IMG/VR virus record: IMGVR_UViG_3300008108_005838
Coordinates: 1 to 36,222 of that record
Reading direction: 5' to 3' (one strand)
DNA: 36,222 nt
From: a virus
In this document: positions 16,854 to 36,222 of the stretch, piece after piece
Layout: each line of letters opens with the position of its first letter
Numbering within the stretch: position 1 is the first letter of the stretch
The notes under the pieces: model-generated
Seen by the model: the letters and a program-made list of their open reading frames with translations, nothing else
The model's database searches: none
What the model was told of the DNA's origin: nothing
Program-made: the position numbers and the translations under genes

Positions 16854-17414
16854 ATGACAATTAAAATTGAAATGGTAGAGGTACCACCAAGTCAGGATCA
16901 AAAAATCAGTAGTTTTGCGATTGGTAAATATCCAGTGACTCAGGAACAATATGAAGCAGTAATGGGAACCAATCCCTCTTGGTTTCAAGACAATCCTCAA
17001 AATCCAGTGGAAAGTGTAAGTTGGAACAATGCCCAAGTTTTTTGTCAGAAATTGAGTGAAATGACCGGCAAAACTTATCGCTTACCGACAGAAGCGGAAT
17101 GGGAGTATGCTTGCCGTGCGGGAACTGATACTGTCTATTATTTTGGTAATGATGCTAATCAATTAGGAGATTACGCTTGGTATTGGGGAAATTCTCAGGA
17201 AACAACCCATCCTGTAGGGCAAAAATTACCTAATGCTTGGGGACTCTATGATATGCACGGCAATATTGAGGAGTGGTGCCAAGAAGTTGTGCTGCGGGGC
17301 GGTTCCTGGGCCGACTTTCCTAATAACTGCCGTACCGCGATTCGCGACTTCTTTAACGTCCGCCGCAACGACAACTTCAACGCTTACGGTTTTCGGGTAG
17401 TTTGTGATAATTAG
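16854..17414 (+). CDS. Hypervariable FGE-sulfatase/C-type-lectin-fold protein 1 (DGR target)
   Basis: 186 residues, starting behind CTAGGAGTAAGAA. Core of the formylglycine-generating-enzyme family: GKYPVTQEQYEAVMGTNPSW, NPVESVSWNNAQVFC, YRLPTEAEWEYACRAGT, HPVGQKLPNAWGLYDMHGN and EEWC, ending RGGSW...GFRVVCDN. In enzymes of this family the C-terminal loop holds the active site; here it is the variable region (17295-17411) with NNC/NNT codons, so it is more likely a diversified binding protein than an enzyme. The first of seven such genes in tandem. Confidence 0.85.
   Translation: MTIKIEMVEVPPSQDQKISSFAIGKYPVTQEQYEAVMGTNPSWFQDNPQNPVESVSWNNAQVFCQKLSEMTGKTYRLPTEAEWEYACRAGTDTVYYFGNDANQLGDYAWYWGNSQETTHPVGQKLPNAWGLYDMHGNIEEWCQEVVLRGGSWADFPNNCRTAIRDFFNVRRNDNFNAYGFRVVCDN
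17295..17411 (+). other. DGR-type variable region 1
   Basis: After the constant CGG GGC GGT TCC TGG, the codons read GCC GAC TTT CCT AAT AAC TGC; later codons include AAC GTC, AAC GAC AAC TTC. Third bases are C or T as in the sister genes, while first and second bases differ. It ends in the constant GGTTTTCGGGTAGT. Confidence 0.75.
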
Positions 17415-17458
17415 TTACTAATCAATTATTTATCAGTTATATCTTAGGAGTAAAAATA

Positions 17459-18016
17459 ATGATTAAAATTGAAATGGTAGAGATACCATCAAGTCAGGAT
17501 CAAGGAATTAGTAGTTTTGCGATTGGGAAATATCCAATTACTCAGGCGCAATATGAAGCAGTAATGGGAAACAATCCCTCTCGGTTTCAAAACAATCCCC
17601 AAAATCCGGTAGAAAAGGTTAGTTGGAATGATGCTCAAGCCTTTTGCCAAAAATTGAGTCAAATAACCGGGAAAACCTATCGCCTCCCCACAGAAGCGGA
17701 ATGGGAGTATGCTTGTCGTGCAGGGACTACTACTCGCTTTTATTTCGGTGATGATGCTAATCAATTAGAAGATTACGCTTGGTATTACGCAAATTCTCAG
17801 GGGACAACTCATTCTGTGGGACAGAAAAAACCCAATGCTTGGGGACTTTATGACATGAGCGGCAATGTTTGGGAGTGGTGCGAAGACGGCGTGAATCGGG
17901 GGGGTTCTTGGTACAGCGATCCTGATCTCTGCCGTTCCGCTTACTGCCATTACGACAACTATCGCCGCGACTACCAAAACAACAATCTCGGTTTTCGGGT
18001 AGTCTGTGACAATTAG
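17459..18016 (+). CDS. Hypervariable FGE-sulfatase-fold protein 2 (DGR target)
   Basis: 185 residues, about 75% identical to protein 1 outside the variable region. Starts behind TTAGGAGTAAAAATA. Same blocks: GKYPITQAQYEAVMG, NPVEKVSWNDAQAFC, YRLPTEAEWEYACRAGTTT, NAWGLYDMSGNVWEWCEDG and a variable tail RGGSWYSDPDLCRSAYCHYD...LGFRVVCDN. The tail is Tyr/Asp/Asn-rich, as in binding surfaces created by adenine mutagenesis (AAY codons turning into TAY, GAY, AGY). Confidence 0.85.
   Translation: MIKIEMVEIPSSQDQGISSFAIGKYPITQAQYEAVMGNNPSRFQNNPQNPVEKVSWNDAQAFCQKLSQITGKTYRLPTEAEWEYACRAGTTTRFYFGDDANQLEDYAWYYANSQGTTHSVGQKKPNAWGLYDMSGNVWEWCEDGVNRGGSWYSDPDLCRSAYCHYDNYRRDYQNNNLGFRVVCDN
17897..18013 (+). 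other. DGR-type variable region 2
   Basis: Codons after GGG GGT TCT TGG: TAC AGC GAT CCT GAT CTC TGC CGT TCC. The later part is TAC TGC CAT TAC GAC AAC TAT. Every changed codon keeps C or T in the third position. Confidence 0.75.
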
Positions 18017-18045
18017 TCAATTATTAGTTATCAGCAGTAAAAATA

Positions 18046-18336
18046 ATGATCATTCAACAAGTCACTTTTCTCGCTAAAGACTTTGACGATACTGAATATC
18101 AATTTAGTGGCACCCTGTTTCCTAATGGTGCTGTAATGGTATCTTACGCTCACACAAACGACGGTTGGTTTGAGAGTCTTGAAAGTGTTGACGCTTGTGG
18201 AAATGCAAGTGTAGTCAATTGGGAACTAGGGAAAAAGTCTAGAATGTCAAGGGCTTCTGTAAGAGAATCCCTAAAAGGTGCTGTGCGAGAATTTGGATCG
18301 GACAAAGGCACAAAAAAAGGATTTAAGTTGCTTTGA
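18046..18336 (+). CDS. Hypothetical cassette protein
   Basis: 96 residues between two FGE genes, with the array leader (TTATCAGCAGTAAAAATA then ATG). Sequence MIIQQVTFLAKDFDDTEYQF, GTLFPNGAVMVSYAHTNDGW, then a basic tail KKSRMSRASVRESLKGAVRE. Beta-rich start and basic helical end. No family recognised. Confidence 0.5.
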   Translation: MIIQQVTFLAKDFDDTEYQFSGTLFPNGAVMVSYAHTNDGWFESLESVDACGNASVVNWELGKKSRMSRASVRESLKGAVREFGSDKGTKKGFKLL

Positions 18337-18394
18337 TTATCTTTTAGCGTCAGTTGGTTATTAGTTATCAGTAAAAACAAAGCTAGGAGTAAAA

Positions 18395-19168
18395 ATGATG
18401 ATTAAAATTGAAATGGTAGAGGTACCATCAAGTCAGGATCAAAAAATCGGTAGTTTTGAGATTGGTAAATATCCAGTGACTCAGGAGCAATATCAGGCGG
18501 TAATGGGAGTTAATCCATCTTATTTTCAAGGTAATCCGCAAAATCCAGTAGAAATGGTTAGTTGGGAAGACGCTCAAGCCTTTTGCATAAAATTAAATGG
18601 AGTGACTAGCCATAAGTATCGTCTCCCTACACAAGAGGAATGGGAATATGCCTGTCGTGCTGGGACTACTACTGACTATTATTTCGGAGATGATGCTAAT
18701 CAATTAGGAGATTACGCCTGGTACGAAGACAACTCTGGGCTGATAACCTATCCTGTAGGCGCAGCAAAATCACCTAATGCTTGGCTGATAACCCATCCTG
18801 TAGGGCAAAAATTACCTAATGCTTGGGGACTCTATGACATGATTGGCAACGTCTGGGAATGGTGTGAAGATGGTTGTCTGCGGGGCGGTTCCTGGAACGA
18901 CCTTCCTTATTTATGCCGTTCCGCGAATCGCGACAGCAGCCCTCCCAGCGGGCTCCGCTTCAACAATGGCGGTTTTCGGGTAGTACAAACTATTAGACCA
19001 ACACTATTAGCTGAAGAGATGTGGGAAGCGCAGTTACCTGAACCGTATAAAGATATGATTTTATCTGAAGTAGTAGAATATCTAGAGACTATGCAGACTA
19101 AAGAGGAAAAAGAGAAGTTTATAACTGCTATATACTGGTCAGGGTTTCAAGCGTGTCTGGATGATTAA
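18395..19168 (+). CDS. Hypervariable FGE-sulfatase-fold protein 3 with C-terminal extension
   Basis: 257 residues. The FGE core is as in proteins 1 and 2, with an internal duplication of about 20 residues (LITYPVGAAKSPNAW and LITHPVGQKLPNAW). The variable region (18881-18985) has the Cys..Arg..Asn/Asp/Ser pattern (LCRSANRDSSPPSGLRFNNG). Unlike most sisters, the frame does not stop after GFRVV: it runs on through QTIRPTLLAEEMWEAQLPEP into an acidic helical tail (EVVEYLETMQTKEEKEKFIT) that protein 4 shares. The tail may be an adaptor or oligomerisation segment. Confidence 0.85.
   Translation: MMIKIEMVEVPSSQDQKIGSFEIGKYPVTQEQYQAVMGVNPSYFQGNPQNPVEMVSWEDAQAFCIKLNGVTSHKYRLPTQEEWEYACRAGTTTDYYFGDDANQLGDYAWYEDNSGLITYPVGAAKSPNAWLITHPVGQKLPNAWGLYDMIGNVWEWCEDGCLRGGSWNDLPYLCRSANRDSSPPSGLRFNNGGFRVVQTIRPTLLAEEMWEAQLPEPYKDMILSEVVEYLETMQTKEEKEKFITAIYWSGFQACLDD
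18881..18985 (+). other. DGR-type variable region 3
   Basis: Codons after TGG: AAC GAC CTT CCT TAT TTA TGC CGT TCC GCG AAT CGC GAC AGC AGC. AAC, AAT and AGC codons at these places are close to what the template would be expected to hold. Confidence 0.75.
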
Positions 19169-19239
19169 GATGATTAGGGTAGGGCCCCTCCCAAAAAGTT
19201 AGCTATCAGTTGTTAAAATAAAGCACTTAGGAGTAAGAA

Positions 19240-19947
19240 ATGGCAATTAAAATGGTAGAGATACCAGCGAGTCAAGAAATTAAAAGTTTTAGGATTGGCA
19301 AATATCCAGTGACTCAGGTACAATATCAGGCGGTAATGGGAGTTAATCCATCTTATTTTCAAGGTAATCCTCAAAATCCAGTAGAAAATGTCAGCTATGA
19401 TGATGCTGAAACTTTTTGCCAGAAATTAAGTAAAGCAACAGGGAAACAATATCGCTTACCAACGGAGGCTGAATGGGAATATGCCTATCGTGCGGGGACA
19501 ACTAGCGACTATTATGGAGATTATGCTTGGTATAAAGGAAATTCTCAGCAGACAACTCATCCTGTAGGACAGAAGAAGCCCAATGCTTGGGGACTTTATG
19601 ATATGCGCGGCAACGTCTGGGAATGGTGCCAGCAGGTTGTAATACGAGGCGGTTCCTACTGCACCGATCCTCTTAACTTCCGTTCGTTTCGCATCGACTA
19701 CATACGCCGCGGCAGCCGCTACGACAGTATCGGTTTTCGAGTGGCAGAAACTATTAGACCAATACTATTAGCTGAGGAGATGTGGGAAGCACAGTTGCCT
19801 GAACCGTATAAAGACATGATTTTATTTGAAGTAATAGAATACCTAGAGAATCTACAGACTAAAGAGGAAAAAGGAAAGCTTCTGACCGCTATATACTGGT
19901 CTGGTTTTCAAACGTCTCTGGATCACATAGATGATTACAGTTCTTAA
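19240..19947 (+). CDS. Hypervariable FGE-sulfatase-fold protein 4 with C-terminal extension
   Basis: 235 residues; starts behind TTAGGAGTAAGAA. Core blocks GKYPVTQVQYQAVMG, NPVENVSYDDAETFC, YRLPTEAEWEYAYRAGT, NAWGLYDMRGNVWEWC; a shorter loop after RAGT (SDYYGDYAWYKGN). The variable tail RGGSYCTDPLNFRSFRIDYI...SIGFRVAETIRP lacks the usual Cys after the Pro. The extension LLAEEMWEAQLPEPYKDMIL and following helix match protein 3, including IYWSGFQ. Confidence 0.85.
   Translation: MAIKMVEIPASQEIKSFRIGKYPVTQVQYQAVMGVNPSYFQGNPQNPVENVSYDDAETFCQKLSKATGKQYRLPTEAEWEYAYRAGTTSDYYGDYAWYKGNSQQTTHPVGQKKPNAWGLYDMRGNVWEWCQQVVIRGGSYCTDPLNFRSFRIDYIRRGSRYDSIGFRVAETIRPILLAEEMWEAQLPEPYKDMILFEVIEYLENLQTKEEKGKLLTAIYWSGFQTSLDHIDDYSS
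19645..19743 (+). other. DGR-type variable region 4
   Basis: Codons after GGC GGT TCC: TAC TGC ACC GAT CCT CTT AAC TTC. NNC/NNT pattern kept; later GGC AGC CGC TAC GAC AGT ATC. Confidence 0.7.
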
Positions 19948-20007
19948 CTCTGCGTTCGCTTGGCTATCAGCTATTAGTTGTCAACTAACAATTATTTAGA
20001 AGCAAAA

Positions 20008-20655
20008 ATGAGTGATACAGATTTTATTCGAGAAGTTGAAGAACTGCATCTGCGTCTTGCTGATGCAGATACAGATGATCTGGTTGAATTAGCTAAACTT
20101 GCGGGTTTGGACCCTAAACTCGCAATTCAGATTGAAATGGTAAAAGTTCCTGACGCAACTTTTGCAATAGGAAAATATCCAGTGACTCAGGCACAATATG
20201 AAGCGGTAATAGGAACTAATCCTTCCCACTTTCAAGGCAATCCTCAGAATCCAGTGGAAAGTGTTAGTTATAACAATGCCATAGCTTTTTGTCAAGAACT
20301 AAGTCAAGTGACTGGTAAGAATTACCGCTTACCCACAGAATCAGAGTGGGAATATGCTTGCCGCGCGGGGACTACTACTCGCTGGTATTTTGGTAATAAT
20401 TATCGCCAATCAGGAGATTACGCTTGGTATGGTGGAAATTCTGAAGACACAACTCATCCTGTAGGACAAAAATTACCTAATGCTTGGGGATTATACGATA
20501 TGAGTGGCAATGTTTACGAATGGTGTCAAAGTGAAATACTACGGGGTGGCTCCTATCTATCCCATGATGGATGTTGCGACTCTACGTTTTGCATAAACTC
20601 TTTCGGTGACTTCAAATACTGCACTAATGGTTTTCGGGTAGTCTGTGACAATTAG
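20008..20655 (+). CDS. Hypervariable FGE-sulfatase-fold protein 5 with acidic N-terminal extension
   Basis: 215 residues from ATG at 20008 (TTAGAAGCAAAA leader); the longer frame from 19978 reads into repeat DNA. An acidic helical N-terminus of about 40 residues (SDTDFIREVEELHLRLADAD, TDDLVELAKLAGLDPKLA) precedes the FGE core. The tail RGGSYLSHDGCCDSTFCINS..TNGFRVVCDN is the most divergent variable region, with four Cys. The N-terminal extension could anchor the protein to a partner. Confidence 0.82.
   Translation: MSDTDFIREVEELHLRLADADTDDLVELAKLAGLDPKLAIQIEMVKVPDATFAIGKYPVTQAQYEAVIGTNPSHFQGNPQNPVESVSYNNAIAFCQELSQVTGKNYRLPTESEWEYACRAGTTTRWYFGNNYRQSGDYAWYGGNSEDTTHPVGQKLPNAWGLYDMSGNVYEWCQSEILRGGSYLSHDGCCDSTFCINSFGDFKYCTNGFRVVCDN
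20542..20652 (+). other. DGR-type variable region 5
   Basis: The codons TAT CTA TCC CAT GAT GGA TGT TGC GAC TCT keep C/T third bases except CTA and GGA. The greater divergence hints at older or drift-altered sequence. Confidence 0.65.
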
Positions 20656-20723
20656 CAACTAATCAATTAATTATCAGTTATCAGTTATTAGTTGCTATCA
20701 ACAACTTAACAGGAGTAAAAAAT

Positions 20724-20912
20724 ATGTTGCAGGATATAGCTCATTATCGACTAAGTTTTTTGAAAATGACCGAATTAAGAAAATTAGCATCTGAATATGG
20801 ACTTCCAACACAACGATGGAATCGGACAATTTTAATTGCCGAACTTAGCAAGGTTATAGACTGGACGACACTGCCAAAACCTAAAACAACAGTTGACTGG
20901 TTTAAATTTTAG
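20724..20912 (+). CDS. SAP-like small protein, copy 1
   Basis: 62 residues; CAGGAGTAAAAAAT leader. KMTELRKLASEYGLPTQRWN then RTILIAELSKVI has the helix-helix spacing of a SAP/Rho-N-type DNA- or RNA-binding motif (L..LR..A...G.......K..LI..L). It is almost identical to 21507-21695, with its downstream leader, as part of a duplicated block (offset 783 bases). Confidence 0.6.
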   Translation: MLQDIAHYRLSFLKMTELRKLASEYGLPTQRWNRTILIAELSKVIDWTTLPKPKTTVDWFKF

Positions 20913-20962
20913 TTATCAGTAGTTAGTTATCATCCGTCAAAAACAAAATACTTAGGAGTAAA

Positions 20963-21418
20963 ATGACAATTATAGGAACTAATCCTTCCCATTTTCAAGG
21001 CAATCCTCAGAATCCAGTGGAAAGTGTTAGTTATGATGATGCTCAAGTTTTTTGTCAAAAATTAAGTCAAATAACAGGAAAAACCTATCGCCTACCGACG
21101 GAAGCGGAATGGGAATATGCCTGTCGTGCAGGAACTACTACTAAGTATTATTTCGGTGATGATGTCAATCAGTTAGAAGATTACGCTTGGTATTGCGGAA
21201 ATTCTGAGGGTACAACTCATCCCGTAGGATTAAAGCTATCCAATGCCTGGGGATTGTACGATATGCACGGTAACGTTTGGGAATGGTGTATTGATAAGTG
21301 TCTGCGGGGCGGTTCCTGGGGCGACATTCCTTATTTCTGCCGTTCCGTGATTAGCGATGACTTCGGCCACGGCGACAGCCTCAACACTCTCGGTTTTCGG
21401 GTAGTCTGTGACAATTAG
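20963..21418 (+). CDS. Hypervariable FGE-sulfatase-fold protein 6, N-terminally shortened
   Basis: 151 residues behind TTAGGAGTAAA. It begins MTIIGTNPSHFQGNPQNPVE, so the first strand block (GKYPVTQ.QYEAVMG, about 40 residues) is missing: the usual start ATGACAATT was joined to the middle of the gene by deletion. The remaining core and variable tail (RGGSWGDIPYFCRSVISDDF...TLGFRVVCDN) are intact and in frame. Folding without the first block is uncertain. Confidence 0.75.
   Translation: MTIIGTNPSHFQGNPQNPVESVSYDDAQVFCQKLSQITGKTYRLPTEAEWEYACRAGTTTKYYFGDDVNQLEDYAWYCGNSEGTTHPVGLKLSNAWGLYDMHGNVWEWCIDKCLRGGSWGDIPYFCRSVISDDFGHGDSLNTLGFRVVCDN
21305..21415 (+). other. DGR-type variable region 6
   Basis: Codons after TGG: GGC GAC ATT CCT TAT TTC TGC CGT TCC GTG ATT AGC GAT GAC TTC GGC CAC GGC GAC. 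Third bases of the variable codons are C or T. Confidence 0.75.
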
Positions 21419-21433
21419 TTACTAATCAGTTAT

Positions 21434-21475
21434 TTATCAGTTATCAGTTATCAGTTATCAGTTATCAGTTATCAG
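21434..21475 (+). repeat. TTATCAG heptanucleotide tandem repeat
   Basis: Six perfect tandem copies of TTATCAG. Shorter runs of the same heptad occur in most gaps of the array (for example 553-567, 16810-16824, 20670-20690, 22955-22965, 23675-23690, 25093-25116). Short tandem repeats of 7 bases are known from cyanobacterial genomes. Confidence 0.85.
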
Positions 21476-21506
21476 TTATTATCGACAAATCAACAAGAGT
21501 AAAAAT

Positions 21507-21695
21507 ATGTTGCAGGATATAGCTCATTATCGACTAAGTTTCCTAAAAATGACCGAATTAAGAAAATTAGCATATGAATACAGGATTCCAAAACAACAAT
21601 GGAATCGAACGATTTTAATTGCCGAACTTAGCAAGGTTATCGACTGGACGACACTGCCAAAACCTAAAACAACAGTTGACTGGTTTAAATTTTAG
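21507..21695 (+). CDS. SAP-like small protein, copy 2
   Basis: 62 residues, differing from copy 1 at only a few places (AYEYRIPKQQWN for ASEYGLPTQRWN). The C-terminus (WTTLPKPKTTVDWFKF) and the following 60 bases are identical to copy 1, so the block SAP gene + leader + truncated FGE gene was duplicated recently. Confidence 0.6.
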   Translation: MLQDIAHYRLSFLKMTELRKLAYEYRIPKQQWNRTILIAELSKVIDWTTLPKPKTTVDWFKF

Positions 21696-21745
21696 TTATC
21701 AGTAGTTAGTTATCATCCGTCAAAAACAAAATACTTAGGAGTAAA

Positions 21746-22172
21746 ATGACAATTAGGTAATCCTCAGAATCCAGTAGAACAAGTTAGCTATAACGACGCT
21801 ATAGTTTTTTGTCAAGAACTAAGTCAAGTAACTGGTAAGAATTACCGCTTACCGACGGAATCAGAGTGGGAGTATGCTTGTCGGGCAAACACAACTACTG
21901 GTTGGTATTTCGGCAATATTTATCATCAGTTAGAAGATTACGCTTGGTATTTCGACAATTCTCAGGGAACAACCCATCCTGTAGGGCAAAAAAGGCCTAA
22001 TACTTGGGGACTGTACGATATGCACGGTAATGTCTGGGAATGGTGTGAAGAAGGTTTTATGCGGGGCGGTTCTTGGGGCAACTATCCTACTTACTGCCAA
22101 TCCGCAAGTCGCGGCAACGTCAACGGCCGCGACAGCCTCAACACTCTTGGCTTTCGGGTAGTCTGTGATTAA
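21746..22172 (+). pseudogene. Broken FGE-sulfatase-fold gene 7 with intact variable region
   Basis: The leader and ATGACAATT are as in gene 6, but then TAGGTAA stops the frame after four codons. From 21756 another frame is open to TAA at 22170: GNPQNPVEQVSYNDAIVFCQ, YRLPTESEWEYACRANTTTG, NTWGLYDMHGNVWEWCEEG, MRGGSWGNYPTYCQSASRGN...GFRVVCD. Compared with gene 6 about 27 bases were deleted out of frame. The variable tail is well preserved, so the loss may be recent, or the gene may act as a donor. Confidence 0.7.
22062..22169 (+). other. DGR-type variable region 7
   Basis: Codons after TGG: GGC AAC TAT CCT ACT TAC TGC CAA TCC GCA AGT CGC GGC AAC GTC AAC GGC CGC GAC AGC. NNC/NNT pattern as in the others. 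Confidence 0.72.
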
Positions 22173-25145: not shown

Positions 25146-25847
25146 ATGAGCATTAAACCGCAACTTTTCGAGCAACCGTATATTAAGCCTACTATGAAAC
25201 CTAAAGGCACTATTCGGCTATTTTTAGAAGGTTCAGAAGATGGACTCCAGCGCCTGGCAGATTTACATCAATCGGGGGAATTGCAAGCCTTTCTCAATGT
25301 TAAATCAGACGATATATCCGAAATTGTCGTCGCAAAAGTAGAGTTCACTACAAATGCAAAAGTTATTGAAAAAGCCGAATTAATTAAGGCAATTCGAGAA
25401 GGAACAATTGATAAGACAACTTTACAACAAGTTGATTTAAGTGGGGCTGACCTGAGTGAGGCGATCCTAAGTGGAGCTGACCTGAAAGGGGCTATTCTAA
25501 GTGGGGCTGACCTGAGTTGGGCTATCCTGAGTGATGCTAATTTGAGTAGGGCTGATCTGAATGGGGCTATTCTAAGTGGGGCTGACCTGAGAGGGGCTAA
25601 TCTGAGTAGGGCTACTCTAAGTGGGGCTAAGCTGAATAGTGCTAACCTGTGGGAGGCTGACCTGATTGAGGCTAACCTGATTGAGGCTAACTTGAGTGGG
25701 GCTAACCTGTGGGAGGCTGATCTGAGAGAGGCTGACCTGAGTGGGGCTGATGTTGAAAACGCTATCTTTATCGATGCAACAGGTATTACCTCTAAACAAA
25801 TACAGGATTTAATTCGACGAGGGGCAATTCTATTGCGAGAAAAATAA
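25146..25847 (+). CDS. Pentapeptide-repeat protein 1
   Basis: 233 residues behind ATAGGAGTAAATAA. Residues 1-95 form a unique domain (KGTIRLFLEGSEDGLQRLAD, LHQSGELQAFLN, then helical KAELIKAIREGTIDKTTLQQ). Residues about 98-205 are some 20 pentapeptides of the A(D/N)LS/X type (ADLSGADLSEAILSGADLKG), which fold as a right-handed quadrilateral beta helix. A capping segment follows (IFIDATGITSKQIQDLIRRG). Such proteins can mimic DNA; the real role here is unknown. The frames on the other strand across the repeats are shadows. Confidence 0.88.
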   Translation: MSIKPQLFEQPYIKPTMKPKGTIRLFLEGSEDGLQRLADLHQSGELQAFLNVKSDDISEIVVAKVEFTTNAKVIEKAELIKAIREGTIDKTTLQQVDLSGADLSEAILSGADLKGAILSGADLSWAILSDANLSRADLNGAILSGADLRGANLSRATLSGAKLNSANLWEADLIEANLIEANLSGANLWEADLREADLSGADVENAIFIDATGITSKQIQDLIRRGAILLREK

Positions 25848-25853
25848 CATACA

Positions 25854-25968
25854 GATGCCAACTTGTTTATGAAAGGTATAGCGATAGCCTCTAATTTTGT
25901 AGTAGAGGGGGACTATAAAGAAAGGTACGGAACATCTTACATCTAGGAACTAACTTACAACCCCAACA
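25854..25968 (+). pseudogene. Fragment of family member 3 (gene 24618)
   Basis: About 115 bases matching the 3' part of 24618-25046 (GATGCCAACTTGTTTATG, GTAGTAGAGGGGGACTATAA, AGGTACGGAACATC), with an indel after TTTATG and TGG changed to TAG. It has no start and lies directly after pentapeptide gene 1. Confidence 0.7.
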
Positions 25969-25985
25969 CATGCAAGGAGTAAAAA

Positions 25986-26267
25986 ATGATTAGTTACGGA
26001 GCTACAATAGAAATCAAAAGTGTTTATGTTAATTTACCTAAATCAACAAAAGATTTTATCGCTGATTTAGTCAATGAAGCAAAACAAAAACCACAGTTTT
26101 CAGCATTGCTTAAACATTGTTACAACCGCACTATTGCCAATGGAAAGAATACTAATCTTTTCGCAGTAGCTATTGCAATAGCTTCAATTATATTTGTAGA
26201 AGGAGAGATGTCTTGCGTATATTTTCTTAGCTTAGAATATCTTAATCTAGAAAATCTTAAGGTGTAA
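25986..26267 (+). CDS. Short member of the same family
   Basis: 93 residues behind GCAAGGAGTAAAAA. Related to the protein at 24618: LPKSTKDFIADLVNEAKQKP, AIAIASIIFVEGE; the central hydrophobic TGVS.P segment is lost by deletion. The end MSCVYFLSLEYLNLENLKV is new. Probably a degenerate paralogue that still has an open frame. Confidence 0.5.
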   Translation: MISYGATIEIKSVYVNLPKSTKDFIADLVNEAKQKPQFSALLKHCYNRTIANGKNTNLFAVAIAIASIIFVEGEMSCVYFLSLEYLNLENLKV

Positions 26268-26344
26268 TAAAATAAGAAGTAAAACACATGAGTACAAATT
26301 CAAGAGCCAGAACCAGTTAAACTTCCTCCCAAAGCTAAAGAATT

Positions 26345-27427
26345 ATGAAACTTAAAGGCACTATTCGGTTATTTTTAGAAGGTTCAGAAGAGGGCTTAAA
26401 GCACCTAGCAGATTTACATCAATCGGGGGAATTGCAAGCTCTTCTCAATGAATTTAAATCAGACGATATGCACGAAATTATTGTCACAAAAGTCGAGTTC
26501 ACTACAGATGCAAAAGTTATTGAAGTTATTGAAAAAGACGAATTAATTAAGGCAATTCGAGAGGGAACAATCGATAAGACAACTCTACAACAAGTTGATT
26601 TAAGTGGGGCTAACCTGATTGGGGCTGACCTGAGTAAGGCGGACCTGAGAGAAGCTAAACTGAGTGGAGCTATTCTGAGAGGGGCTAAACTGAGTGAGAC
26701 TAAAATGATTAAGGCTGATCTGAGTGGGGCAGATCTGAGTGAGGCTAACCTGTGGGGGGCTAAATTAAGAAGGGCTGACCTGAGTGGAGCTAAACTAATA
26801 AGAGCTGACCTGAGTGGGGCTGACCTGAGTTGGGCTAAACTGATTAATACTAACCTGAGTGGAGCGGACCTGAGAAGGTCTAACCTGAGAAGGACTGACC
26901 TGAGTTGGGCTGACCTGAGTTGGGCTAAAATGATTGAGGCTAACCTGAGAAGGGCTGACCTGAGTTGGACTAACCTAAGTGGGGCTAAGCTGATTAAGGC
27001 TATCCTGAGTGAAGCGGACCTGAGTGGGGCTATCCTGAGAGGGGCTAATCTGAGAGGGGCTATCCTTAGTGGAGCGGACCTGAGAGAAGCTAAACTGAGT
27101 GAAGCTATCCTGAGTGAAGCTGACCTGAGAGAAGCTAACCTGAGTGGGGCTAAACTGATTAAGGCTATCCTGAGTGATGCTATTCTGAGTGATGCTATTC
27201 TGAGTTGGGCTGATCTGAGTTGGGCTATCCTGAGTGGGGCTGACCTGAATGCAGCTATTCTGATTGAGGCTAACCTAAAAGGGGCTGACCTGAGTAAAGC
27301 TAACCTGAGAGGGGCTGACATTGAAGACGCTATCTTTATCGGTGCAACGGGGATCACCCCTGAACAAGAACAGGATTTAATTCGACGAGGGGCAATTCTA
27401 TTGCGAAATTCTAATGTACCTAGCTAA
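26345..27427 (+). CDS. Pentapeptide-repeat protein 2
   Basis: 360 residues, with the same N-terminal domain as protein 1 (KGTIRLFLEGSEEGLKHLAD, KDELIKAIREGTIDKTTLQQ) and about 45 pentapeptides (ADLSGAKLIRADLSGADLSW), twice as many. Same cap (IFIGATGITPEQEQDLIRRG). The upstream bases 26288-26320 are a frameshifted version of the N-terminal lead of protein 1, so the start has moved to 26345, and no AGGAG site remains. Its stop overlaps the 27414 gene. Confidence 0.87.
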   Translation: MKLKGTIRLFLEGSEEGLKHLADLHQSGELQALLNEFKSDDMHEIIVTKVEFTTDAKVIEVIEKDELIKAIREGTIDKTTLQQVDLSGANLIGADLSKADLREAKLSGAILRGAKLSETKMIKADLSGADLSEANLWGAKLRRADLSGAKLIRADLSGADLSWAKLINTNLSGADLRRSNLRRTDLSWADLSWAKMIEANLRRADLSWTNLSGAKLIKAILSEADLSGAILRGANLRGAILSGADLREAKLSEAILSEADLREANLSGAKLIKAILSDAILSDAILSWADLSWAILSGADLNAAILIEANLKGADLSKANLRGADIEDAIFIGATGITPEQEQDLIRRGAILLRNSNVPS

Positions 27428-27482
27428 AACATCACAGATCTCCGACATTATATGGGGAGCGACAGACTACCAGTTCCTATCA
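27411..27482 (+). repeat. 72-bp direct repeat, right copy
   Basis: Right partner of 25030-25101 (62 of 72 bases identical, no gaps). This copy has the intact ATG of the phage-type gene. Confidence 0.8.
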
Positions 27483-30475: not shown

Positions 30476-31004
30476 TGCCTATACAAGGGAGGCGTGTGCC
30501 TTGATTCAACAATACAATAACCTACCCATAGAATTTATAGAAGGCTATGTTAGCGCCAAGGATGTTCTCAGAGCCCTCAATCTCTCTGACGATGCCCTAG
30601 GACAGGTCACTAGTCATAACAAGCTTATGAAGAACTCAACAATGGTACTAGAACCAGCTGGTGTATATCAGCTAGTTCTTATCAATGATGAGATAGACTT
30701 CTGGGACTGGTACAGTGATGAAGCATTGGCTGTTGCTAAGGAGTCGATGTTGCGTATGAGTAATTACATGAAAGCTCGTCGTATCCTCAAGGATATTATG
30801 GATGCCCCCGATGCTGTCGATAAGCTGCCCCGCATAACTAATCAATTAATTGCAGCACGAGAGTATAAGGATGGCATAACTAAATATGATGCCAGTCTAT
30901 ATGTATACCAGCAGATAGCAGATAAGTTAAAGGAGCGCGGTCTATATAAATACGAGCACGCGTTAACAGTATGCTACGAGATAGCAGGAGAATATATTGC
31001 TTGA
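30462..31004 (+). CDS. BRO-N-like protein
   Basis: 180 residues overlapping the previous gene by 14 bases. Residues 18-85 fit the BRO N-terminal domain: IEFIEGYVSAKDVLRALNLS, TSHNKLMKNSTMVLEPAGVY then QLVLINDEIDFWDWYSDEAL. BRO proteins bind DNA and act as antirepressors or regulators in phages and large DNA viruses. The C-terminal half (ITKYDASLYVYQQIADKLKE) is helical and not assigned. Confidence 0.5.
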   Translation: MIVNSAYTREACALIQQYNNLPIEFIEGYVSAKDVLRALNLSDDALGQVTSHNKLMKNSTMVLEPAGVYQLVLINDEIDFWDWYSDEALAVAKESMLRMSNYMKARRILKDIMDAPDAVDKLPRITNQLIAAREYKDGITKYDASLYVYQQIADKLKERGLYKYEHALTVCYEIAGEYIA

Positions 31005-31488
31005 GACTGTATTGGCGCTGCCCGCCATTAGACAAGACAGAGCAGCACTACCCTTCGTCTTCCCAGAGTTATCCCTCTATACTCTCCTGAGTATAGAAGA
31101 TGCTATTCCTAACATCACCATAAATGTAGTGGCTACTAGTCCGTGGGCCCAGGGCACACGCTATGGCACTATGTATTGGACTGTTCTAGTAGTGCGTTAT
31201 CAGAACAATCCCTTCTTAGTAGTGGGCCGCCGTTACGTGACAGATGAGCTTAACCCTAACGAAACGGCCCTCCGCTACGTAATAGACCAGGATCTCTATC
31301 GTACGGCTATCAACTACGCACTACAGCAGGAGACGGAGGAGGTAGTCTTTACTAATAAGGAGCGGCCCCTCGATAAGGAGAAGGCCCAGGCTTTTCATCG
31401 TGTAGGTGGTGAGATACGCTTTATAGAGGCAGATGCCCTCAGCTGCACCATTGGGGACATCAATACATTACTTGACATCTTATTATGA
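30997..31488 (+). CDS. Phage-type hypothetical protein
   Basis: 163 residues from TTG at 30997 behind CAGGAGAA, overlapping the preceding gene by eight bases. Mixed alpha/beta: LETVLALPAIRQDRAALPFV, NITINVVATSPWAQGTRYGT, TVLVVRYQNNPFLVVGRRYV. The last 18 codons lie in a 62-bp sequence duplicated at 32477. The stop TGA overlaps the ATG of the inserted FGE gene (ATGA). Confidence 0.55.
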   Translation: MLETVLALPAIRQDRAALPFVFPELSLYTLLSIEDAIPNITINVVATSPWAQGTRYGTMYWTVLVVRYQNNPFLVVGRRYVTDELNPNETALRYVIDQDLYRTAINYALQQETEEVVFTNKERPLDKEKAQAFHRVGGEIRFIEADALSCTIGDINTLLDILL

Positions 31489-31493
31489 AACAT
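31432..31493 (+). repeat. 62-bp direct repeat, left copy
   Basis: Matches 32477-32538 without gaps, with about eight differences. It spans the last codons of gene 30997-31488, the ATGA overlap and the first three codons (ATGAAACAT) of the next gene. The two copies bracket the inserted FGE gene. Confidence 0.85.
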
Positions 31494-32426
31494 CAAAATA
31501 TGCAATCAAAGAGAGTTCCAGTTTCAGTTAAAACGTCGCAAAAGTTAGAATTGTTATCATTTAACTTTGAGGTGGTGGGAGTAAACGCTAAGGGTGAGCA
31601 AATTAGAAAAGAGTCGAAACAGTCCCAATATTTCAGCGAAGATTTGAGCAACGACATCACCTTAGAAATGGTTGCTATCCCGGGGGGAACATTCACGATG
31701 GGTTCACCGCAAGACGAGAAAGATAGTTTTAAGGATGAACGCCCTCAACATGAGGTTACTGTCTCCACCTTTTTCATGGGCAAGTATCCCATCACCCAGG
31801 CACAGTGGAGAGCAATTGCCTCTCGCACAGATTTGAAAGTAGAAAAAGACCTTGATCCTGATCCCTCCCACTTTAAAGATAGGGGGAGATCGTCCACGTG
31901 CTGGGATAGACCCGTAGAACAAGTTGACTGGTACGATGCCGTCGAGTTCTGCACGAGATTATCTAAACTAACGGGGGGGGGGGAATACCGACTTCCCAGT
32001 GAGGCGGAATGGGAGTACGCCTGTCGTGCTGGAACCACCACCTCATTTCACTTTGGGGAAACCATTACCGGGGAATTGGCTAACTATGATGCCAGCAAAA
32101 CCTACGCTGATGAACCCAAAGGAGAATATCGACAACAAACGACTCCCGTGGGACAATTTCCCCCCAATGCCTTCGGTTTGTATGATATGCACGGCAACGT
32201 CTGGGAGTGGTGTGCTGATACTTGGCACGATAACTACGGTGCGCCGACGGATGGCAGTGCCTGGATAAAAAATGGGGATGATAATTGTTCTCCTCGACGG
32301 GGCGGTTCTTGGTTCAGCTATTCCCGTCGCTGTCGTTCTGCTTACCGCAGTAACAGCGACAACCGCCGCAGCCTCAACAGCAGCCTCGGTTTTCGGGTGG
32401 TGTGCAGTTCTGGGAGGACTCTGTAG
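31485..32426 (+). CDS. Hypervariable FGE-sulfatase-fold protein 8, inserted into the phage operon
   Basis: 313 residues, the fullest FGE protein in the window: a leader (MKHQNMQSKRVPVSVKTSQK), then EMVAIPGGTFTMGSPQDEKD, HEVTVSTFFMGKYPITQAQW, YRLPSEAEWEYACRAGTTTS, NAFGLYDMHGNVWEWCADTW, and RRGGSWFSYSRRCRSAYRSN...SLGFRVV. It uses the start codon and first three codons of a phage gene, so it is translated by coupling to the upstream gene. An 11-G run (31973-31983) lies in the coding part (LTGGGEYRLPS). The tail ends CSSGRTL. Confidence 0.9.
   Translation: MKHQNMQSKRVPVSVKTSQKLELLSFNFEVVGVNAKGEQIRKESKQSQYFSEDLSNDITLEMVAIPGGTFTMGSPQDEKDSFKDERPQHEVTVSTFFMGKYPITQAQWRAIASRTDLKVEKDLDPDPSHFKDRGRSSTCWDRPVEQVDWYDAVEFCTRLSKLTGGGEYRLPSEAEWEYACRAGTTTSFHFGETITGELANYDASKTYADEPKGEYRQQTTPVGQFPPNAFGLYDMHGNVWEWCADTWHDNYGAPTDGSAWIKNGDDNCSPRRGGSWFSYSRRCRSAYRSNSDNRRSLNSSLGFRVVCSSGRTL
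31973..31983 (+). repeat. 11-base G homopolymer inside the FGE gene
   Basis: ACGGGGGGGGGGGAATAC encodes T-G-G-G-E. The sister genes have ordinary codons here (for example ACTGGTAAGAATTAC). A slip of one G would break the gene before its variable region. Confidence 0.8.
32298..32405 (+). other. DGR-type variable region 8
   Basis: Codons after GGC GGT TCT TGG: TTC AGC TAT TCC CGT CGC TGT CGT TCT GCT TAC CGC AGT AAC AGC GAC AAC CGC CGC AGC CTC AAC AGC AGC CTC. Nearly all end in C or T. The region ends in GGTTTTCGGGTGGTG. Confidence 0.75.
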
Positions 32427-32476
32427 CAGAAAGGAATTTAACTTAGTGTCAACAGACTTTTAAAAATTAGGTAGCC

Positions 32477-32538
32477 GATGCCCTCAGTTGCACTATTGAG
32501 GGCATCAATACATTACTTGGCACATTACTATGAAACAT
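32477..32538 (+). repeat. 62-bp direct repeat, right copy
   Basis: Right partner of 31432-31493. It encodes DALSCTIEGINTLLGTLL, a second, orphaned end of gene 30997-31488, followed by the ATG of the gene at 32530. Confidence 0.85.
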
Positions 32539-32859
32539 ATACAGGCTATTGATTATTTAGTCAGGCCTGACGAGGCCTCTAATTATAGAATAGTTAGAAA
32601 GAGCATCCACGGTATTAAGATTATTGATACAATGGGCTACACAACCCATCAATTAATATTGCTTGATTTGTTAGATATGCAAACTGTGACTAAAGCCATG
32701 CAAGAAATATACCATAGGTACCCAGATATAGAGCCTCGTATTAAGAATAGTGACTATGCAATGTTATCTTATATATTGTGTGTAATTATGTACAATGTAG
32801 ATGATGTTCCTAGACATATTGGTAACTATCTGAGGCGTTTACGTTATACAACAGACTAA
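32530..32859 (+). CDS. Phage-type helical hypothetical protein
   Basis: 109 residues, MKHIQAIDYLVRPDEASNYR onward, with a helical second half (TKAMQEIYHRYPDIEPRIKN, YAMLSYILCVIMYNVDDVPR). Before the FGE insertion it followed gene 30997-31488 directly with an ATGA overlap. A second, partial copy of its 3' two-thirds follows at 32982. The present end RRLRYTTD may not be the original one. Confidence 0.5.
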   Translation: MKHIQAIDYLVRPDEASNYRIVRKSIHGIKIIDTMGYTTHQLILLDLLDMQTVTKAMQEIYHRYPDIEPRIKNSDYAMLSYILCVIMYNVDDVPRHIGNYLRRLRYTTD

Positions 32860-32981
32860 CCAATTATTTACTTTGAATGTGGGGGTTATCTATATCTATT
32901 AGGCCTTTACTTAATAGACAGTGGGTAGTCTGTCCAAGGGCTTGAATTTCTGTCCGCCCGACAGTATTTGCTTTGTAAACC

Positions 32982-33206
32982 GTGATTAAAGCCATGCAAG
33001 AAATATACTATAGGTACCCAGGTATAGAGTCTCGTATCAAGAAGAGTGAATATACAATGTTATCTTATATATTGTGCGTAATTATGCACAATGTAGATAA
33101 TGTTCCTAGACATATTGATAACTATCTATATCTATACGTTAGTAATCGCTTGAGTAGCATCTACCCTTATCTTCAAAGCCCCTTGACAAAAGAGTCGCAG
33201 CTTTAA
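32982..33206 (+). pseudogene. Partial duplicate of gene 32530
   Basis: Bases 32982-33127 match 32686-32831 without gaps (about 92%). The frame from 32982 (GTGATTAAAGCCATGCAAG) reads IKAMQEIYYRYPGIESRIKK, YTMLSYILCVIMHNVDNVPR and ends YVSNRLSSIYPYLQSPLTKE. This may hold the original C-terminus of the 32530 gene, separated by about 150 bases of new DNA. Confidence 0.6.
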
Positions 33207-33299
33207 GTTGTCACGGGCCTTGAGGTGTTGAAATAAGAATTACTGTCACTAAATAGTTCTTTAGTACTAAATAACCTAGCGAGAATGAGAGGGATCATT

Positions 33300-33713
33300 A
33301 TGTCTTCTGAAGACAAAAGGAAATTATTGTTAGAAAAAGTGTCCTGCGAGGCTCAGTCAAGACTCGCATATTATGACCTGCTTACGCAGGGAGAGGCTTT
33401 TCGCCAACACCTAAAGTCTTTGTCTGACGTCAAGATTGAGGAGATAGATTGGCATTTCTTAAAAGGCTTTTTGTCTTATTCTAGACGCTTATATACTACA
33501 GGCAAAATTAGTAAATCTGCTTATATATCTCTGGTTACTCAAGCTGCCGAATTTTATGCTGAGAAGCTGGTAGAGAGAAAATTGGCAAAAAGCGTTAACT
33601 GTGCAGTCAGCCGGGGGGCGTTAGTCAAATTAATATTTGTGCTAACCTCACTATCAGGCAACTTTCTGTGGTACACAATATCAATCACACAATTGGAGTA
33701 TAGCCATGATTAA
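33300..33713 (+). CDS. Hypothetical protein, guest type
   Basis: 137 residues from ATG at 33300 behind GAGAGGGATC; the ATG at 33285 is an alternative. Helical and basic: SSEDKRKLLLEKVSCEAQSR, EIDWHFLKGFLSYSRRLYTT, EFYAEKLVERKLAKSVNCAV, and a hydrophobic end LIFVLTSLSGNFLWYTISIT. Composition differs from both neighbours' GGCC-rich genes. It overlaps the phosphatase start by eight bases. Confidence 0.5.
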   Translation: MSSEDKRKLLLEKVSCEAQSRLAYYDLLTQGEAFRQHLKSLSDVKIEEIDWHFLKGFLSYSRRLYTTGKISKSAYISLVTQAAEFYAEKLVERKLAKSVNCAVSRGALVKLIFVLTSLSGNFLWYTISITQLEYSHD

Positions 33714-34860
33714 CATGAAGGCTCACACCGTATATATGGTTGTGAGGCCATATACAGAAAAGAAGAAGATATTAATGAGGGCCGCTCAGGAAGTAGGGGC
33801 CCTCTACATAAAGGGCCCCCATCTACTAGAGAATACAATATCGTATCCTAGCTCTCTCTCAGCGCACCACGTGCTAGTAGAAATTAAAAATCAAGAAGAG
33901 GCCGATCAGGTTATAATGGTGGCGGGCTGCCATCACTACGGCGTAGGAGAAATACTATTCAATGCCGAGAGCAGCATAGGGGTTGAGCTCAGTCATTTTA
34001 TAGAACGGCAGGAAGATATAGCGCTTAGTGTAGAGCAAGTGCCCCACTACACTATGAATGATGAGGCCCTAGTAGTAGGGGATATTCATGGTTGTTACGG
34101 CCATCTGCGTGCGCTACTTAGAAAGGCGGGCTTCTTATTTGCAGGGGATGAGATTACTTATTACCCCATGCAATTGGTGCTCAACGGAGACCTAGTAGAT
34201 AAGGGCCCCAACTCTGCTGACGTTATTAAATTCGTGTACTCTAACTTAGGTCACCCTGATTTCAAGGTCGTACTAGGTAATCACGAGCTCTATATTATGC
34301 AGCACATAGATGATGTGAAGCCTAATAGTCGCTTCTTCGATTATCTCACTACAGTTAGGGCTAATCGCATGCAGCGTAATATGTTTAATGCAATCTATAA
34401 AGAGAGTGTGCCCTACCTCGTATCCCGTAGTCGTACCTCTGCTGTTCACCACTCTCCTTGCGACTATAGGTATGTAGGCAAGTCTGACCCTGTCTCTATA
34501 CAAAGACAGATTCACCTACCTAGTATTCGAGGTCAGGCTAATAAGCAGAATACCAGCGTAGACGAAGTATTATACCCGTACTTCAATGGCCAGCCAAACT
34601 GGCCGTTAGTTATTAATGGTCATGTCACTACTAAGCATCCGTTACTAATTAATAACCGCGCCATGATTGATACAGGTGCCTTTCTAGGCTGTTATCTAAC
34701 AGCAGCTCATGTCATGGGCTCTACCTGTCAATTCATATCCACAGAGAGTGTGGACTCCGCGCGTAATTCTATGCGCTTTAATCCCATCGCACCCGCGATG
34801 CAAAATACAAGAAGTAGCGTTAGAAGAAACGTGCCTCATCAGGTTAAAGTTTTAATCTAG
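33706..34860 (+). CDS. Calcineurin-type metallophosphatase with N-terminal extension
   Basis: 384 residues. Residues about 125-330 carry the metallophosphoesterase motifs: VVGDIHGCYGHLRALLRKAG (GDxHG), LVLNGDLVDKGPNSADVIKF (GDxxDRG variant with Lys for Arg), KVVLGNHELYIMQH (GNHE), VINGHVTTKHP (GH) and MIDTGAF. This is the Ser/Thr- or diadenosine-polyphosphatase type seen in phages (lambda phosphatase relatives). The first 120 residues (VYMVVRPYTEKKKILMRAAQ) are not recognised. Phage-type composition. Possible roles: dephosphorylating host proteins or removing signalling nucleotides. Confidence 0.85.
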   Translation: MINMKAHTVYMVVRPYTEKKKILMRAAQEVGALYIKGPHLLENTISYPSSLSAHHVLVEIKNQEEADQVIMVAGCHHYGVGEILFNAESSIGVELSHFIERQEDIALSVEQVPHYTMNDEALVVGDIHGCYGHLRALLRKAGFLFAGDEITYYPMQLVLNGDLVDKGPNSADVIKFVYSNLGHPDFKVVLGNHELYIMQHIDDVKPNSRFFDYLTTVRANRMQRNMFNAIYKESVPYLVSRSRTSAVHHSPCDYRYVGKSDPVSIQRQIHLPSIRGQANKQNTSVDEVLYPYFNGQPNWPLVINGHVTTKHPLLINNRAMIDTGAFLGCYLTAAHVMGSTCQFISTESVDSARNSMRFNPIAPAMQNTRSSVRRNVPHQVKVLI

Positions 34861-35502: not shown

Positions 35503-36222
35503 ATGCCAAGAGTTCCTGTTATCTCAAAAGACGGAAAGCCGTTAATGCCCACCAAACCCAGTCGGGCCAGACGGTGGATTAAGGAAGGAAAAGCTATCGG
35601 TAAATTCAACGACTTAGATATTTTCTATGTCCAGTTAATCTCCGAGCCTTCCGATAGTAAAACCCAACCGATTGCTATTGGTATTGACCCGGGTAAATTA
35701 TTCTCTGGAATCGGTGTTCAATCTTCTCTTTTCACTCTCTGGAAAGCTCACTTAGAACTTCCTTTTAAAAGAATAAGAGAACGAATGGATAATAGGCGAT
35801 TAATGCGACGGGGCAGAAGGGGACGACGGATCAACCGCCACATTCCTTTTAAGTCACGGGCGCATCGTCAAGAACGATTCTCTAACAGAAGAAAAGCTAA
35901 GTTGGCTCCCTCAATCAGAGCTAATCGTCAACTTGAACTTCGAGTCGTTTCCGAACTAACTAAAATCTATCCAATTACTGACATTTACTTTGAGTATGTC
36001 AAAGCCGATGTTGATTTAACTTCTGGTAGAAAAGGGGCTAAGTCTGGAAAAGGTTTCTCGCCGGTTATGGTTGGACAAAAATGGGCTATTGAGCAACTGT
36101 CTCAGTTTGCAACAGTCCATACTCGCTTTGGTTGGCAAACCTCTAATCTCAGAAAACATTTGCGACTAGAAAAGTCTAAAAATAAAGCAGAACAATCACC
36201 CGAAAGTCATGCTAACGATGGA
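35503..36222 (+). CDS. isrB: IsrB-type RNA-guided nuclease (RuvC without HNH), 5' part
   Basis: The first 240 codons are in the window; the gene runs off the edge. N-terminal PLMP domain (VPVISKDGKPLMPTKPSRAR), RuvC-I GIDPGKLFSGIGVQ, an Arg-rich bridge helix (NRRLMRRGRRGRRINRHIPF), RuvC-II DIYFEYVKADVDL, then directly GFSPVMVGQKWAIEQLSQFA, GWQTSNLRKHLRLEKSKNKA and the RuvC-III-like ESHANDG. In IscB an HNH domain stands between RuvC-II and III; here there is no room for one, as in IsrB, which nicks one DNA strand. AAGGATTATCTCCT gives the ribosome site. Guest-type composition. Confidence 0.8.
   Translation, partial: MPRVPVISKDGKPLMPTKPSRARRWIKEGKAIGKFNDLDIFYVQLISEPSDSKTQPIAIGIDPGKLFSGIGVQSSLFTLWKAHLELPFKRIRERMDNRRLMRRGRRGRRINRHIPFKSRAHRQERFSNRRKAKLAPSIRANRQLELRVVSELTKIYPITDIYFEYVKADVDLTSGRKGAKSGKGFSPVMVGQKWAIEQLSQFATVHTRFGWQTSNLRKHLRLEKSKNKAEQSPESHANDG

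What the first reader, a model, noticed from the sequence alone, without database searches (positions are those of the whole stretch)
31432..32538. Eighth hypervariable gene inserted between 62-bp copies of a phage stop/start junction, taking over its start codon
Bases 31432-31493 and 32477-32538 are gap-free copies, about 87% identical, spanning the end of one phage gene, an ATGA overlap and ATGAAACAT of the next gene. The FGE gene lies exactly between and begins in frame with that ATGAAACAT, so it is translated by coupling to the upstream gene while the downstream gene keeps its own copy of the junction. A single insertion with such a long duplication is not a usual transposon footprint. It looks like a way to add cargo to an operon without breaking it.
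Basis: partly seen in the sequence, partly recalled or inferred. Interest (0 to 1): 0.75.

Follow-up and report, generated by a model that had tools for sequence, protein, structure and literature searches.

The report
Stolen host sensor gene in cyanophage
A virus of the bloom-forming cyanobacterium Microcystis carries the hypervariable half of a host TIR-sensor-like gene, fused to the start codon of one of its own genes, and the repeated 62 bases around it are most likely the trace of a later repair that put the broken neighbour gene back rather than the footprint of the insertion.

Summary
The repeat is real: 31432-31493 and 32477-32538, gap-free, 54/62 identical. The window is a Ma-LMM01-like Microcystis phage. 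Relatives without the FGE gene have one junction copy, and the FGE gene begins in frame at gene B's ATGAAACAT. But a one-step, operon-sparing insertion is not supported. Of 11 distinct FGE-carrying contigs that reach the far border, 3 have two complete copies; the other 8 have gene B cut. Three of those run unbroken from the FGE gene into the 3' end of host aspS, as in Microcystis chromosomes: the insert is a captured host fragment, the FGE half of a TIR-FGE gene. That capture broke gene B; the broken copy survives (about 32974-33127). The second junction copy with intact gene B groups with no-insert phages (96% versus 89%; split support 98/96), so it was probably re-imported from a sibling phage. 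Gene B is not coupled in its new place. Both genes appear constrained. The FGE variable region differs from Microcystis DGR templates mainly at template adenines, yet five complete relatives lack a reverse transcriptase and template. A phage with the diversified sensor half of a host TIR protein, without TIR domain or RT, is the most interesting part.

The parts
30997..31488 (+). Gene A, upstream phage gene (phrog_31619, unknown function); its stop overlaps the next start (ATGA)
   Evidence: present in all relatives
31432..31493 (+). Junction copy 1 (J1): end of gene A + ATGA overlap + ATGAAACAT
31485..31558 (+). 5' part of the FGE gene without a match in Microcystis genomes (about 24 codons, 28-30 in relatives), starting at gene B's former start codon
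31485..32426 (+). FGE-sulfatase (C-type-lectin fold) gene, 313 aa; FGE half of a host TIR-FGE protein, omega about 0.2 between phages
31559..32476 (+). Segment homologous to the Microcystis chromosome (TIR-FGE gene from the TIR/FGE linker on, plus its 3' flank next to aspS)
32298..32401 (+). Variable region of the FGE gene; differs from the host DGR template mainly at template adenines (15/29 A sites, 5/74-76 other sites)
32477..32538 (+). Junction copy 2 (J2); no longer part of a translated upstream gene (TAG directly upstream in A's frame)
32530..32859 (+). Gene B, intact 109 aa, alpha lineage like the no-insert phages; no database family; omega 0.24-0.31
32915..32974 (-). Remnant of an insertion sequence (60 bp, 98% to the end region of the LMM01 transposase gp031)
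   Evidence: (Bdup 55-114 versus L013 370-311)
32974..33127 (+). B', broken older copy of gene B (beta lineage, 5' end missing, CAA to TAA nonsense)
33285..33713 (+). 142-aa ORF present only with B' (T2-T4 arrangements), no family match
33706..34860 (+). Metallophosphoesterase gene, downstream anchor shared with all relatives

Best explanation
Step 1 (well supported): an ancestor of these Microcystis phages captured a host chromosomal fragment: the FGE half of a TIR-FGE gene plus the 3' end of the convergent aspS gene. Its left end was joined just after gene B's start codon, so the new gene is read from ATGAAACAT and coupled to gene A by the ATGA overlap (coupling inferred). Its right end was joined inside gene B, so gene B lost its first part and decayed (beta-B, B'). 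Step 2 (inferred from structure and trees): in the lineage of the window, L022 and L031, recombination with a sibling phage lacking the insert put a [junction + intact B + about 40 bp] segment into the captured aspS remnant. The left join lies at a short near-match (host GGGCAATGCCC, phage GGCCGATGCCC). This made the second junction copy. Step 3: further recombination and deletion gave the other arrangements. The FGE protein is probably a working, TIR-less sensor domain kept by selection. Its binding region carries the signature of diversity-generating retroelement (DGR) mutagenesis and matches host DGR templates. The most likely role, which is inference only, is to interfere with or imitate a host TIR-FGE sensor.
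For: Empty site with a single junction in 6 isolate loci and contig L033. Contigs L023, L026 and L029 keep FGE + aspS 3' flank contiguous (host coordinates to 1812, tail 92-94% identical) as in Microcystis G011, G016, G017; the ORF scan shows aspS and a TIR-FGE gene of 452 aa there, with TIR_2 and FGE domains. J-locus FGE genes (11 of 12) group together, placed among Microcystis genes and apart from the phages' core FGE gp062 (the 11-row fork itself 82/66, a 9-row subset starred 100/98). The aspS-to-B join (GGGTTT|ATTAG) occurs both in T3 and in front of B' in T2/T4. T2 gene B: 96.0% to no-insert phages, 89.3% to B'; alpha|beta split 98.2/96; beta copies share a nonsense codon. FGE body omega 0.15-0.23, T2 B omega 0.24-0.31.
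Against: The T3 contigs are 99.5-99.7% identical over this stretch, so T3 as sampled may have spread recently; its age rests on its 5% divergence from the B' copy. Trees from 62-165 bp are weakly resolved inside the two lineages, and recombination is rampant at the locus (gene A identical in contigs of different type). The first 24-30 codons of the FGE gene have no known source. The exact donor genome was not found (75-90% identity). The functional role is not tested.
Confidence: 0.68

Rival explanations
1. One-step capture with duplication: replication or repair switched from the phage after ATGAAACAT to host FGE DNA and back to the phage 62 bases upstream, giving J1-FGE-J2-B in one event; other arrangements are later decay.
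For: Empty sites have one copy. J2 joins host sequence at a short near-match. T1 contigs keep a J2 remnant with the same join, so this join is old.
Against: T3 contigs and the sequence before B' contain host DNA beyond the J2 join and the same host-to-B join, which would need a second capture from the same host locus. T2 gene B is closer to no-insert phages than to B' of its own genome. J1 and J2 of one genome are not closest to each other.
Confidence: 0.22
2. Old tandem gene duplication: gene B and its junction duplicated first (B and B' exist) and the FGE gene entered between the copies later.
For: A second, partial copy of B does lie downstream.
Against: No relative has two junction copies without the FGE gene. 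B' has no junction and is preceded by aspS sequence in four contigs.
Confidence: 0.05
3. Transposon-type insertion with a long target-site duplication.
For: A gene between direct repeats; an insertion-sequence remnant lies nearby (32915-32974).
Against: No transposase or recombinase domain in the insert; copies only 87% alike; the right border differs between contigs; the IS remnant is outside the insert.
Confidence: 0.03

Closest known systems
Cyanobacterial DGR variable proteins with FGE/CLec domains (Vallota-Eastman et al. 2020, PMC7517822; Dore et al. 2024, PMC10907252)
   Same: FGE domain with a C-terminal variable region differing from a template at adenines; TIR and other effector domains are known N-terminal partners; targets diversified in trans within one bacterial genome are reported.
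   Different: Here the gene is on a phage, lacks its TIR domain, and no RT or template was found in the phage or its complete relatives.
Phage morons / host-derived auxiliary genes of cyanophages
   Same: Extra gene between two phage genes, absent from close relatives, derived from the host.
   Different: No promoter above chance and no terminator; it uses the neighbour's start codon, and its arrival broke that neighbour.
Core FGE gene of Ma-LMM01-like phages (gp062, phrog_18508 'kinase')
   Same: Same family, 71-74% identical protein, also with a DGR-like variable region.
   Different: Separate place in the genome and separate branch in the tree, hence probably another capture.

Membership tests
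DGR (diversity-generating retroelement) variable protein | C-type-lectin/FGE fold domain at the C-terminus | tested here: met
   Pfam FGE-sulfatase 7.8e-60; matches to T. denticola variable protein 2y3c and to chain 5nxl
DGR (diversity-generating retroelement) variable protein | Variable region differing from a template repeat mainly at template adenines | tested here: met
   15/29 A sites versus 5/76 other sites, p about 1e-6; six variable regions of the window together 87/174 versus 40/453
DGR (diversity-generating retroelement) variable protein | RT and template in the same genome | tested here: not met
   No RVT_1 in window, five complete isolates and five contigs; no template core within 3 mismatches in the window, the isolates and one 107-kb contig. 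RT and template are in Microcystis G007, G011, G015, Avd confirmed in G007
DGR (diversity-generating retroelement) variable protein | Ongoing retrohoming into this gene | not testable with these tools
   Would need time series or infection experiments
Phage moron | Inserted gene between adjacent phage genes, absent from relatives | tested here: met
Phage moron | Own promoter and terminator | tested here: inconclusive
   3 promoter-like sites versus 1.9 expected, 0 terminators; consensus scan only
Transposon insertion with target-site duplication | Transposase or recombinase and short exact duplication | tested here: not met

The most novel reading that the evidence does not exclude
Microcystis phages carry a set of FGE genes that are diversified in trans by the host's own DGR during infection. 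The gene at this site is the sensor half of a host TIR-FGE immune protein, kept without its TIR domain as a decoy or dominant-negative partner that blocks a TIR-based response and is continually re-diversified by host machinery.
Probability: 0.2. Interest if true: 0.88.

Novelty: new variant of a known kind. Interest (0 to 1): 0.6.

Why it matters
The locus shows, step by step in natural relatives, how a host gene enters a phage operon, breaks a neighbour, and how the neighbour probably returns from a sibling phage: empty site, capture, restored and decayed forms all exist. It also shows a phage carrying the hypervariable sensor half of a host TIR protein without the machinery that diversifies it. 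That makes two questions directly testable: whether a cell's retroelement can mutate phage genes in trans, and whether phages use such domains against DGR-diversified sensors.

Tried and rejected
Duplicate of the phage's own core FGE gene (gp062): first candidate donor by identity, rejected because the J-locus genes share N-terminal FGE residues and 3' flank with Microcystis genes and fall on another branch. Search for the source of the first 24-30 codons in 12 Microcystis genomes: nothing. DGR reverse transcriptase in the phages: none. Further viral contigs through gene B, the 142-aa ORF and the phosphoesterase: only one extra partial locus. Phage and plasmid collections with the T3 stretch: no isolate phage with the insert. 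Using J1/J2 divergence to date the event: too few sites and too much recombination. The variable regions vary partly by exchange between FGE genes (L025 body groups with other host genes), so the adenine pattern alone does not prove homing inside phages. No structure prediction was run; the fold is clear from Pfam and PDB matches.

Full report
What was checked. The two copies exist as described: 31432-31493 and 32477-32538, no gaps, 8 of 62 positions different. The window is a fragment of a Ma-LMM01-like Microcystis phage: the region matches only Fukuivirus isolates, at about 89% DNA identity. Gene A (30997-31488) is phrog_31619; the FGE gene (31485-32426) has a full FGE-sulfatase domain; gene B (32530-32859) has no family.

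Empty sites. Isolate loci from Ma-LMM01, MaMV-DL01, -CH01, -CH02, -DH01 and -DC and contig L033 have A-junction-B with a single junction and no FGE gene. Gene B is not essential: it is broken in LMM01, MaMV-DC and L033.

Arrangements. A scan of IMG/VR with gene A gave 15 loci. With the isolates they fall into types. T0: no insert. T1 (L019-L021, L024, L025, L030): FGE followed by only about 27 bp of the second junction, then gene B without its 5' part. T2 (window, L022, L031): FGE, complete second junction, intact B, then a broken second B (B') and a 142-aa ORF. T3 (L023, L026, L029): FGE followed without a break by host DNA, then a truncated B, then (in L026 and L029, L023 ends early) B'. T4 (L028): T1 plus B'. 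L027 and L032 end too early; L019-L021 are the same sequence here. So the two-copy form is the minority (3 of 11), and in most FGE+ phages gene B is broken. FGE itself is open in 10 of 12 contigs (early stop in L022, interrupted in L028).

Where the insert comes from. Microcystis genomes carry many FGE genes at 75-85% DNA identity. In three of them (G011, G016, G017) the 3' flank of the FGE gene continues into the end of aspS, and the T3 phages show this same continuous stretch at 92-94%. In G011 the host gene encodes a 452-aa protein, TIR domain plus FGE domain, convergent with aspS. The phage kept the FGE half from the linker on, lost the TIR domain, and replaced it by the start codon of gene B and about 24-30 codons of unknown origin. 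Eleven of twelve J-locus genes group in a protein tree, next to Microcystis genes and apart from the phages' other FGE gene gp062; support for the full group is moderate (82/66).

What made the second junction copy. Three observations favour a later re-import of junction plus gene B. First, the join between host aspS and gene B (GGGTTT|ATTAG) is found in T3 and also in front of B' in T2 and T4, so an ancestor had host DNA running directly into gene B. In the window itself this short aspS piece before B' is missing and an insertion-sequence remnant stands there. Second, gene B exists in two lineages: alpha (T0, T2 B, most T1) and beta (T3 B, all B', L019), split with 98.2/96 support; beta copies share a nonsense codon. 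The intact B of the window is alpha; its broken B' is beta. Third, J1 and J2 of the same genome are no closer to each other than J2 is to T0 junctions. The left join of the imported piece lies at a near-match, host GGGCAATGCCC and phage GGCCGATGCCC. A one-step origin by template switching remains possible, but then the host tail in T3 and before B' needs a second capture from the same locus.

Consequences. FGE is placed to be translated from gene B's start by coupling to A (inferred from the ATGA overlap). Gene B, in its new place, is not coupled to A: A's frame is closed by TAG directly upstream of J2 and no start precedes it. Both FGE (omega 0.15-0.23) and T2 gene B (0.24-0.31) look constrained. 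'Adding cargo without breaking the operon' therefore describes the end state in three contigs, not the mechanism.

Hypervariability. The 3' end of the FGE gene is a DGR-type variable region. Three Microcystis genomes carry an RT and a template: G007 (L195), G011 (L291), G015 (L299); the Avd protein of G007 passes the NCBIfam cut-off. In the window the variable regions differ from the best template at 87 of 174 adenines but 40 of 453 other sites. No RT and no template was found in the window and five complete isolates. FGE domains as diversified sensors of conflict systems, and trans diversification inside one bacterium, are published (PMC10907252; PMC7517822); a metagenome survey states that remote targets are missed (PMC8144416). 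I found no report of phage genes as targets of a host DGR in the papers searched. Whether host machinery rewrites phage genes, or phages only collect rewritten host genes, cannot be told from these data.

Verdict. Observation confirmed. Interpretation partly supported: insertion and start-codon takeover yes; single duplicating insertion and operon-sparing design not supported.

Noticed in passing
window 16854-22165: Array of seven FGE-type genes or fragments; five of them have recognisable DGR-type variable regions (17295, 17897, 18881, 21305, 22062) with changes concentrated at template adenines, though the phages have no RT.
   Followed up: partly
window 20718-20972 and 21501-21755: 255-bp direct repeat, 95% identical, around one FGE gene of the array: tandem duplication of a small ORF plus FGE start.
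   Followed up: no
L195 1-3642; L291; L299; L305: Microcystis DGR loci (Avd, RT, AAC-rich template). G015:C2, which holds L299, appears to be the 43.6-kb plasmid of M. aeruginosa FD4 (same FGE hit coordinates as NZ_CP046974).
   Followed up: partly
window 25360-27430: Two genes made of pentapeptide-type repeats with a 15-bp period.
   Followed up: no
window 35503-36222: Gene with an RRXRR/IscB N-terminal match (NF040563, below its cut-off), running off the window end.
   Followed up: no
window 32915-32974: 60-bp insertion-sequence remnant, 98% to the LMM01 transposase gp031 region, sitting where other phages have aspS sequence before B'.
   Followed up: partly
L028 6633-7148: About 517-bp insertion breaking the J-locus FGE gene; origin not examined.
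   Followed up: no
L025 (3300034023_001015): J-locus FGE gene whose middle groups with other Microcystis FGE genes: exchange with a second host gene after capture.
   Followed up: partly
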